Below, one piece after another: positions 62,091 through 64,000 of a stretch of 64,000 bases of DNA. The position numbers were made by a program, and so were the translations under genes. A model generated the notes under the pieces. That model was not told the origin of the DNA, did no database searches, and saw nothing but the letters and a program-made list of their open reading frames with translations. The stretch comes from Methylobacterium sp. J-068. Lineage in GTDB: Bacteria; Pseudomonadota; Alphaproteobacteria; Rhizobiales; Beijerinckiaceae. Each line of letters begins with the position of its first letter. Positions within the stretch are counted from its first letter, which is position 1. The stretch is from positions 1 to 64,000 of the forward strand of contig NZ_JAKSXY010000063.1 in NCBI RefSeq assembly GCF_022829445.1, read 5' to 3'.

Positions 62091-62422
62091 CACGCAATTC
62101 GGTCGATCACTTCGGTCTTCATACTCGGAACGCGCCCCCTCTCCTGGAAGGAGAGGGTTGGGGTGAGGTGCAGGCCATCTCCGGAGGGGTCACACACCTC
62201 ACCCTCACCCTCTCCTTCCAGGCGAGGGGACCCCGCGCCAGTTTCCGAACTGTGCGGCCGGAACTCGTCTCACGGGGCTCGGCGACGCTCACGGCGCACG
62301 GGCCCCCACCGACCTCCCGTCATGCGGCGGGAAGGACCGCCGAGGCCGCGCCGCGCGGCCTCAGCGACATCCGCCGCCCCCGGACATCCGGGCGCGGCCA
62401 GTCAAAGCGGAGGTTTGAACCG
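62091..62422. other. Leader region between pufQ-like gene and pufB
   Basis: About 330 bp without a gene. It contains the second REP-like palindrome (62137-62235) and further GC-rich inverted pieces near 62340-62400. No TGT-N12-ACA box is present, so puf expression may depend on read-through from bchC or on a promoter I cannot identify. Structures here could set the level of puf mRNA. Confidence 0.6.
62137..62235. repeat. REP-like imperfect palindrome, copy 2 (puf leader)
   Basis: This repeats the element at the left edge of the window, with arms CTCCTGGAAGGAGAGGG and complement TCTCCTTCCAGGCGAGGG around a CCATCTCCGGAGGGG core. About nine of ten bases agree between copies. It could form a long stem in RNA just before pufB. 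Confidence 0.8.
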
Positions 62423-62644
62423 ATGGCCAATGGCATTGTCGAGAAACCGAGCAGCCTGTCCGGGCTGACGGAACCGGAAGCCAAGGAGTTCCACGCGATC
62501 TTCTTGACGAGCTTCATCATCTTCACGGCGATCGCCGTGGTCGCCCACATCCTGGTGTGGCTGTGGCGCCCGTGGCTGCCCGGACCGAAGGGCTACGCTG
62601 CCCTCGAGACGGCGGCCCAGGGCGTCGTCTCCCTGCTCTCCTGA
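62423..62644 (+). CDS. pufB: LH1 antenna beta polypeptide PufB
   Basis: A 73-aa core antenna protein. A polar N-terminus with [20 protein letters not shown] is followed by a single membrane helix. The bacteriochlorophyll-ligating histidine lies in [16 protein letters not shown]. The C-terminal tail of about 20 residues ([20 protein letters not shown]) is longer than in Rhodobacter. A GGAGG site precedes the ATG at good spacing. Followed by pufA after 16 nt. Confidence 0.96.
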
Positions 62645-62660
62645 GAAGGACCCCCTCATC

Positions 62661-62849
62661 ATGCACAAGGTCTGGCTTCTCTTCGATCCGCGCCGCACGC
62701 TGGTGGCGCTCTTCACCTTCCTGTTCATCCTGGCGCTGCTGATCCACTTCATCCTGCTCAGCACCGACCGCTTCAACTGGCTGGAAGGCCCCAAGGCGCC
62801 GCGCACCGCCAACGCGCAGACCCTGGTCCTGCCGACGATGCCCGCCTGA
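62661..62849 (+). CDS. pufA: LH1 antenna alpha polypeptide PufA
   Basis: A 62-aa core antenna protein with the start [18 protein letters not shown], a membrane helix, and the chlorophyll-binding histidine in [16 protein letters not shown]. The C-terminal tail is [26 protein letters not shown] site lies before the ATG. The 111-nt gap to pufL shows only weak inverted repeats, unlike the strong stabilising hairpins known after pufA in Rhodobacter. Confidence 0.96.
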
Positions 62850-62960
62850 CCGGCGCGGCACCGAACGGCAACGGACCGCACAACACGGATGATCGGCGGG
62901 CTGGCCACACACCACCCGTCGACCATCGCCGAGAATCGTGATGAGCCCTGGGAGGTCGCG

Positions 62961-63785
62961 ATGGCGATGCTGAGTTTCGAGCGCAAATACCGCATCCGCG
63001 GCGGCACCCTGATGGGCGGCGACCTGTTCGATTTCTGGGTCGGGCCGTTCTACGTCGGCTTCTTCGGCGTCACGACGCTGTTCTTCTCGGTGCTGGGCAC
63101 GGCCCTGATCCTCTACGGCGCGGCCCTCGGGCCGACCTGGAACATCTGGCAGATCAACATCGCCCCGCCCGACCTCAAATACGGGCTCGCCCTGGCGCCG
63201 CTCCAGGAGGGCGGCCTCTGGCAGATCATCACCTTCTGCGCGGTCGGCGCCTTCTCGTCCTGGGCCCTGCGCGAGGTCGAGATCTGCCGCAAGCTCGGCA
63301 TCGGCTACCACGTGCCCTTCGCCTTCTCGGTGGCGATCCTGGCCTACGTCACCCTGGTGGTGGTGCGCCCGTTGCTGATGGGCGCCTGGGGCCACGGCTT
63401 CCCCTACGGCATCCTGTCCCACCTCGATTGGGTCTCGAACACCGGCTACCAGTACCTGCACTTCCACTACAACCCGGCGCACATGCTGGCGGTGTCGTTC
63501 TTCTTCACCACCACGCTGGCGCTCTCGCTCCACGGCTCGCTGATCCTGTCCTCCACCAATCCCGGCAAGGGCGAGGTGGTGAAGACGCCCGAGCACGAGG
63601 ACACCTTCTTCCGCGACACCATCGGCTACTCGATCGGCACCCTCGGCATCCACCGCCTCGGCCTGTTCCTGGCCCTCTCGGCGGGCTTCTGGAGCGCGGT
63701 CTGCATCGTCATCAGCGGCCCGTTCTGGACCCGCGGCTGGCCGGAATGGTGGGGCTGGTGGCTCAACCTGCCGGTCTGGCGCTGA
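62961..63785 (+). CDS. pufL: Photosynthetic reaction centre L subunit PufL
   Basis: A 274-aa membrane protein with five helices that binds half of the reaction centre pigments and quinone A/B sites. [30 protein letters not shown], the helix C region around [29 protein letters not shown] with histidine ligands, and [25 protein letters not shown] are typical. GGGAGG before the ATG at 62961 supports this start over an earlier in-frame one. Confidence 0.97.
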
Positions 63786-63811
63786 GGCCGGATCGACCGC
63801 GCGCGACACGC

Positions 63812-63882
63812 ACCTCGGACGACGGCGACGTCGGACAACGACGACTTCGGACAACGACAACTTCGGACAACACGGATTTCGG
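63812..63882. repeat. 16-bp tandem repeats between pufL and pufM
   Basis: Four full units of 16 bp (63812-63827, 63828-63843, 63844-63859, 63860-63875) and a partial fifth follow the pattern ACTTCGGACAACGACA. The right-hand units are most alike. They fill most of the 118-bp pufL-pufM spacer, which is only a few bases long in most purple bacteria. Confidence 0.85.
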
Positions 63883-63903
63883 GAAAGGGGGGCTCGTGAC
63901 GTC

Positions 63904-64000
63904 ATGGCCTATTACCAGAACATCTTCTCCGAAGTGCAGGTCCGGCCGATCAAGCCGGAACACGGAATCCCCGTCGACGTCGACAAGCGTTGGGGCACGC
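63904..64000 (+). CDS. pufM: Photosynthetic reaction centre M subunit PufM (partial)
   Basis: Only the first 32 codons are in the window. MAYYQNIFSEVQVRPIKPEH and the following VDKRWGT match the N-terminus of PufM. The gene runs off the right edge. The CGTGACGTC before the ATG is a poor ribosome binding site, but GAAAGGGGGG lies about 12-20 nt upstream. Confidence 0.9.
   Translation, partial: MAYYQNIFSEVQVRPIKPEHGIPVDVDKRWGT

What the first reader, a model, noticed from the sequence alone, without database searches (positions are those of the whole stretch)
63812..63882. 16-bp tandem repeat array splitting pufL and pufM
pufL and pufM are normally almost contiguous so that L and M are made in equal amounts. 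Here a 118-bp spacer is mostly four and a half copies of a 16-bp unit with drifting left copies and similar right copies, a sign of recent slippage growth. The array may change mRNA folding, decay or translation of pufM, and its copy number could vary between strains.
Basis: partly seen in the sequence, partly recalled or inferred. Interest (0 to 1): 0.6.

Follow-up and report, generated by a model that had tools for sequence, protein, structure and literature searches.

The report
Lineage-specific repeat lengthening pufL-pufM gap
A short piece of DNA repeated about four times in a row sits between two photosynthesis genes of a Methylobacterium; it is real, but it looks like ordinary copying slippage in a gap whose length varies widely across the genus.

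Summary
pufL ends at 63785, pufM starts at 63904, and the 118-bp spacer holds a 16-bp tandem array (63815-63871; TRF score 86, highest in the window; 0 of 60 simulated windows reach it). Two details are off: copies 2 and 3 match best, with divergence toward both ends; and pufL-pufM gaps are short outside the genus (55 of 60 loci under 40 bp) but not inside Methylobacterium, where 107 primary loci span 13-147 bp and 71 are at least 40 bp. A 32-bp piece of the array (up to 3 mismatches) was found in 1 of 111 genus genomes, this one. The other 11 members of its pufLM clade have 23-44 bp spacers; the six 27-bp ones share 20-22 of 27 positions with the window's last 27 bp, which carry pufM's ribosome-binding site. 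So about 91 bp were gained in this lineage. Deleting array copies in silico barely changes predicted access to the pufM start, and the spacer folds no better than shuffles. Smaller tandem duplications occur in the same spacer elsewhere in the genus. Best reading: slippage growth in a length-tolerant spacer, with pufM using its own strong SD; mostly neutral. Strain-level copy number could not be tested. A candidate conserved RNA structure in Methylorubrum-side spacers is the better side lead.

The parts
62961..63785 (+). pufL (photosynthetic reaction centre L subunit), 274 aa plus stop
   Evidence: translation; found in 107 of 111 genus genomes; name from recalled knowledge of the family, protein-family libraries were not scanned
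63772..63795 (+). predicted 9-bp RNA hairpin (63772-63780 with 63787-63795) across the pufL stop codon
   Evidence: RNAfold; whole stretch z -1.11, 31 of 200 shuffles fold as well, so weak
63786..63876 (+). about 91 bp of spacer with no counterpart in the 27-bp spacers of the same clade (29-bp leader plus array)
   Evidence: alignment of 12 clade spacers; tree
63815..63878 (+). 16-bp tandem array, four units TCGGAC...: 63815-63830, 63831-63846, 63847-63862, 63863-63878
   Evidence: TRF (63815-63871); unit identities
63877..63903 (+). old core of the spacer, alignable to the 27-bp spacers of relatives (20-22 of 27 identical in six)
63883..63891 (+). predicted Shine-Dalgarno stretch GAAAGGGGG of pufM
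   Evidence: duplex energy -14.4 to -15.8 kcal/mol, rank 3 of 110
63904..64000 (+). pufM (reaction centre M subunit), start ATG; continues past the window end, 330-aa ORF in L002
   Evidence: no in-frame start codon upstream in 107 open codons

Best explanation
A lineage-specific tandem-repeat expansion inside an intercistronic spacer whose length is loosely constrained in Methylobacterium. Shown: the array exists, is far beyond chance, and is confined to this genome among those searched; the close clade has short spacers; the spacer's last 27 bp, with the pufM ribosome-binding site, align to the whole spacer of relatives. Inferred: replication slippage or unequal exchange made copies of a 16-bp unit upstream of that core; pufM is translated by fresh initiation at its own SD rather than depending on close coupling to pufL; the insertion is neutral or nearly so.
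For: Array real and above chance (0 of 200 shuffles of the spacer reach its self-similarity score 31.5; the next best of 74 spacers is 17.5). Unique: 1 of 111 genus genomes. Derived: 12-row clade at SH-aLRT 99, the other 11 with 23-44 bp. Core kept: 20-22 of 27 identical. Spacer length labile: 13-147 bp over 107 primary loci, at least 7 short/long switches at a 40-bp cut on 105 rows. Other tandem duplications in the same spacer: 18 bp in L040 and L041 (0 of 300 shuffles each), and repeats spanning the pufL stop in L064 (17 bp, 1 of 300) and L008 (13 bp, 3 of 300); 10 of 84 loci fall at or under 15 of 300 against 4.2 expected. Little predicted effect of the array on start-site access: 0.37 full, 0.34 without array, 0.34-0.37 with one to three copies. 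Strong own SD, rank 3 of 110.
Against: The origin of the 29-bp leader and of the first 16-bp unit was not found; no relative shows an intermediate with one or two clear units. L064 and L008 are individually weak after looking at 84 loci. Most long spacers in the genus show no tandem signal (74 of 84 loci above 15 of 300), so slippage explains this array but not spacer length in general. Neutrality is not tested: no expression, proteome or strain data.
Confidence: 0.75

Rival explanations
1. The array tunes pufM output: it changes mRNA folding, decay, Rho-dependent polarity or ribosome standby, so that copy number sets the L to M ratio.
For: It lies in the one place where such tuning could act; the window has a stronger predicted SD (rank 3 of 110) than the other 11 clade members, as might be expected if coupling to pufL had been lost. 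Segmental puf mRNA stability, with a stabilising hairpin after pufBA, sets complex ratios in Rhodobacter (passages of PMC10253847 and PMC6238624 seen).
Against: Predicted start-site access hardly moves with copy number; the array is not unusually unstructured (0.401 unpaired against 0.441 for shuffled arrays, 154 of 200 at least as high); spacer folding z +0.77; no Rfam hit at the spacer (one sub-threshold chance hit elsewhere); no sigma-70-like promoter or terminator-like site in the spacer. The array is not conserved.
Confidence: 0.12
2. The array is a set of binding sites for a DNA- or RNA-binding regulator, kept by selection.
For: Four regularly spaced copies of one unit; the middle two differ at one base.
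Against: The unit is not enriched elsewhere in the genome: at up to 2 mismatches 4 places outside the array against 8 for the reversed control pattern; absent from relatives; ends diverged; no promoter-like site nearby in 62400-64000.
Confidence: 0.04
3. Assembly artefact.
For: Draft genome of 128 contigs; raw reads are not available here.
Against: The whole array of about 64 bp would fit within one ordinary short read (inference), the units are not identical, and both neighbours are intact ORFs.
Confidence: 0.04

Closest known systems
Short tandem repeat (minisatellite-like, VNTR-like) in bacterial intergenic DNA
   Same: Adjacent near-identical units of fixed period in non-coding DNA, restricted to one lineage, as expected of slippage.
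   Different: Copy-number variation between strains, which defines a VNTR, was not testable.
pufA-pufL intercistronic hairpin of Rhodobacter (Klug et al. 1987, known here from passages in PMC10253847 and PMC6238624)
   Same: Non-coding sequence inside the puf operon that could affect segment levels.
   Different: Different gap (pufL-pufM), repeats rather than a conserved hairpin, no unusual predicted stability.
Long pufL-pufM spacers of other Methylobacterium and Methylorubrum species
   Same: Same place, similar length in 20 of 107 primary loci of at least 100 bp.
   Different: Those share no sequence with the array; the Methylorubrum-side ones hold hairpins instead.

Membership tests
Tandem repeat array (minisatellite-like) | Head-to-tail units of one period beyond chance | tested here: met
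   TRF score 86; 0 of 60 simulated windows and 0 of 200 spacer shuffles reach it
Variable-number tandem repeat (VNTR) | Copy number differs between strains | not testable with these tools
   collections used hold one genome per species; in other species the array was not found
Dispersed repeat family (REP/ERIC-like) | Unit recurs at many places in the genome | tested here: not met
   4 places outside the array at up to 2 mismatches, reversed control 8; 126-base query 1 match
Stabilising intercistronic RNA hairpin | Stable hairpin beyond what composition gives | tested here: not met
   spacer z +0.77, 158 of 200 shuffles as stable; with flanks z -1.11, 31 of 200
Stabilising intercistronic RNA hairpin | Measured effect on mRNA half-life | not testable with these tools
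   no expression data
Described RNA family (Rfam 15) | Match at the family's gathering score | tested here: not met
   window 62800-64000: one match at E 0.69, below gathering score and outside the spacer

The most novel reading that the evidence does not exclude
In Methylobacterium the pufL-pufM spacer is a fast-evolving control region: lineages repeatedly gain repeats or hairpins there, pufM is uncoupled from pufL and gets its own strong ribosome-binding site, and spacer content sets the L to M ratio in these aerobic phototrophs. The 16-bp array would be one such recently gained control module.
Probability: 0.08. Interest if true: 0.5.

Novelty: new member of a known kind. Interest (0 to 1): 0.15.

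Why it matters
It shows that the distance between the genes for two subunits needed in equal amounts can change tenfold between related species (13 to 147 bp), which argues against tight stop-start coupling as a requirement for making them. The array itself is a minor, probably neutral instance. If the spacer did control the L to M ratio, the genus would offer many natural variants for testing how operons balance subunits.

Tried and rejected
Array conserved in relatives: rejected, 1 of 111 genomes. Unit dispersed in the genome: rejected. Array as unstructured standby stretch: not supported, it is no less paired than shuffled arrays. Array as structured element: not supported. Known RNA family, promoter or terminator in the spacer: none found. 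pufM start inside or upstream of the array: no in-frame start codon in 107 open codons. Literature: searches (0 papers) gave no paper whose listing concerned a pufL-pufM spacer repeat in Methylobacterium; only passages of two papers were seen, the rest as listings, and subscription papers are mostly not held. The MAFFT alignment was useless because one locus was given on the wrong strand; redone. The first test for the 16S tail (exact 16-mer) found nothing, and one search matched 1 of 21 genomes; one search found GGATCACCTCCTTTC in the own genome (C17:2463-2479), so the last U of the anti-SD used is not supported; one search repeated the SD ranking without it, rank 3 of 110 unchanged. Spacer median was 71 as first counted; after correcting L107, whose pufL is frameshifted, it is 68.

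Full report
What is there. The spacer between pufL (stop 63783-63785) and pufM (ATG 63904) is 118 bp. TRF reports a 16-bp array at 63815-63871, 3.6 copies, score 86, the highest of the window. Sixty first-order Markov simulations of the window reached at most 75, and among 222,448 further bases of the same genome one array scored higher, 88. Against 200 dinucleotide shuffles of the spacer its self-similarity score of 31.5 was never reached; the next best of 74 genus spacers of at least 40 bp scored 17.5. Four units begin with TCGGAC; units 2 and 3 agree at 15 of 16, unit 1 agrees with them at 13 and 12, unit 4 at 12 and 11.

Relatives. The genus search covered 111 genomes; 107 have pufL. I took one pufL-pufM locus from each of these 107, plus 3 of 4 divergent second copies, 110 loci in all. 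Spacers of the 107 primary loci run from 13 to 147 bp; 36 are under 40 and 20 at least 100; the median is 68 after correcting L107, 71 before. Outside Methylobacteriaceae, of the loci returned by a capped similarity search (80 kept of 593), 60 were usable: median 21 bp, 5 at least 40 (16 Methylobacteriaceae rows, one MAG of the genus and 3 rows without a usable pufM start left out). Short gaps are thus usual outside the genus and a minority inside it.

The array is new here. A 32-bp stretch with up to 3 mismatches occurs in 1 of 111 genus genomes, this one (a few genomes are incomplete, the lowest 70%). On a quick maximum-likelihood tree of pufL plus pufM (105 rows; two loci with frameshifted pufL and the three second copies left out; SH-aLRT support only) the window sits in a 12-row clade with support 99; the other 11 have spacers of 23 to 44 bp, and the sister placement with G015 (28 bp) has support 85. 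Six of them have 27 bp, and these share 20 to 22 of 27 positions with the last 27 bp of the window spacer. About 91 bp, a 29-bp leader of unknown origin plus the array, were therefore gained in this lineage.

A labile spacer. On the tree at least 7 changes between under 40 and 40 or more are needed, 9 at a cut of 60. Clear tandem duplication is seen in L040 and L041 (18 bp, 0 of 300 shuffles), weaker in L064 (17 bp) and L008 (13 bp), whose repeats include the end of pufL and its stop region; in all 10 of 84 loci fall at or under 15 of 300, 4.2 expected. So slippage acts in this spacer in more than one lineage, but most long spacers carry no tandem signal.

Does the array do anything? Predicted unpairedness of the pufM start region is 0.37 with the full spacer and 0.34 to 0.37 with array copies left out, rank 52 of 110 loci; the array is no more open than shuffled versions (0.401 against 0.441, 154 of 200 at least as high). 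The spacer alone folds slightly worse than shuffles (z +0.77), with flanks slightly better (z -1.11). No Rfam match, promoter-like or terminator-like site lies in the spacer. The pufM SD is the third strongest of 110 by duplex energy, stronger than in the other 11 clade members (16S tail recalled and checked to GGATCACCTCCTTTC). This suits independent initiation of pufM but does not prove it.

Mechanism. Most likely replication slippage multiplied a 16-bp unit just upstream of the kept core of the spacer, and selection tolerated it because the core with the SD stayed intact. The steps shown are presence, uniqueness and derived state; slippage as the cause, independent initiation and neutrality are inferred. 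Functional tuning of pufM remains possible and untested; I put it at about one in eight.

Side result. In 18 Methylorubrum-side loci the spacer (105-139 bp) has a consensus structure: a 9-bp hairpin soon after the pufL stop and a second stem ending just before the SD, with an inner stem missing as a unit in 4 loci. Cells paired 97.0% (0 of 500 shuffles as high), covariation score 0.092 against 0.072 (4 of 500), pairs with changes on both sides 3 against 1.3 (59 of 500); slid controls give 0.022-0.048. RNAalifold's covariation term is only -0.09. The structure was derived from the same alignment, and relatedness inflates these counts, so this is a lead.

Names.

Noticed in passing
L041:1323-1467 and 17 related loci (alignment A2): Candidate conserved RNA structure in the pufL-pufM spacer of the Methylorubrum-side clade: hairpin after the pufL stop, second stem just before the SD and GTG start, inner stem deleted as a unit in 4 of 18. 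Modest covariation.
   Followed up: partly
L039, L040, L041 (spacer, between the two stems): A 17-18 bp tandem duplication lengthens these spacers to 139 bp; clear in L040 and L041, weak in L039.
   Followed up: partly
L107 (G005) and L108 (G070): pufL is matched in two frames, i.e. appears frameshifted or carries a sequencing error.
   Followed up: no
L018 (G009) and L024 (G054): 73-bp spacers among near relatives with 14 bp, another recent gain, with a weak 21-bp repeat.
   Followed up: partly
L109, L110, L111 (G026, G062, G068); also G034: Four genomes carry a second, divergent pufL (74-75% identical); in the three fetched, a divergent pufM lies beside it, with 42-59 bp spacers.
   Followed up: no
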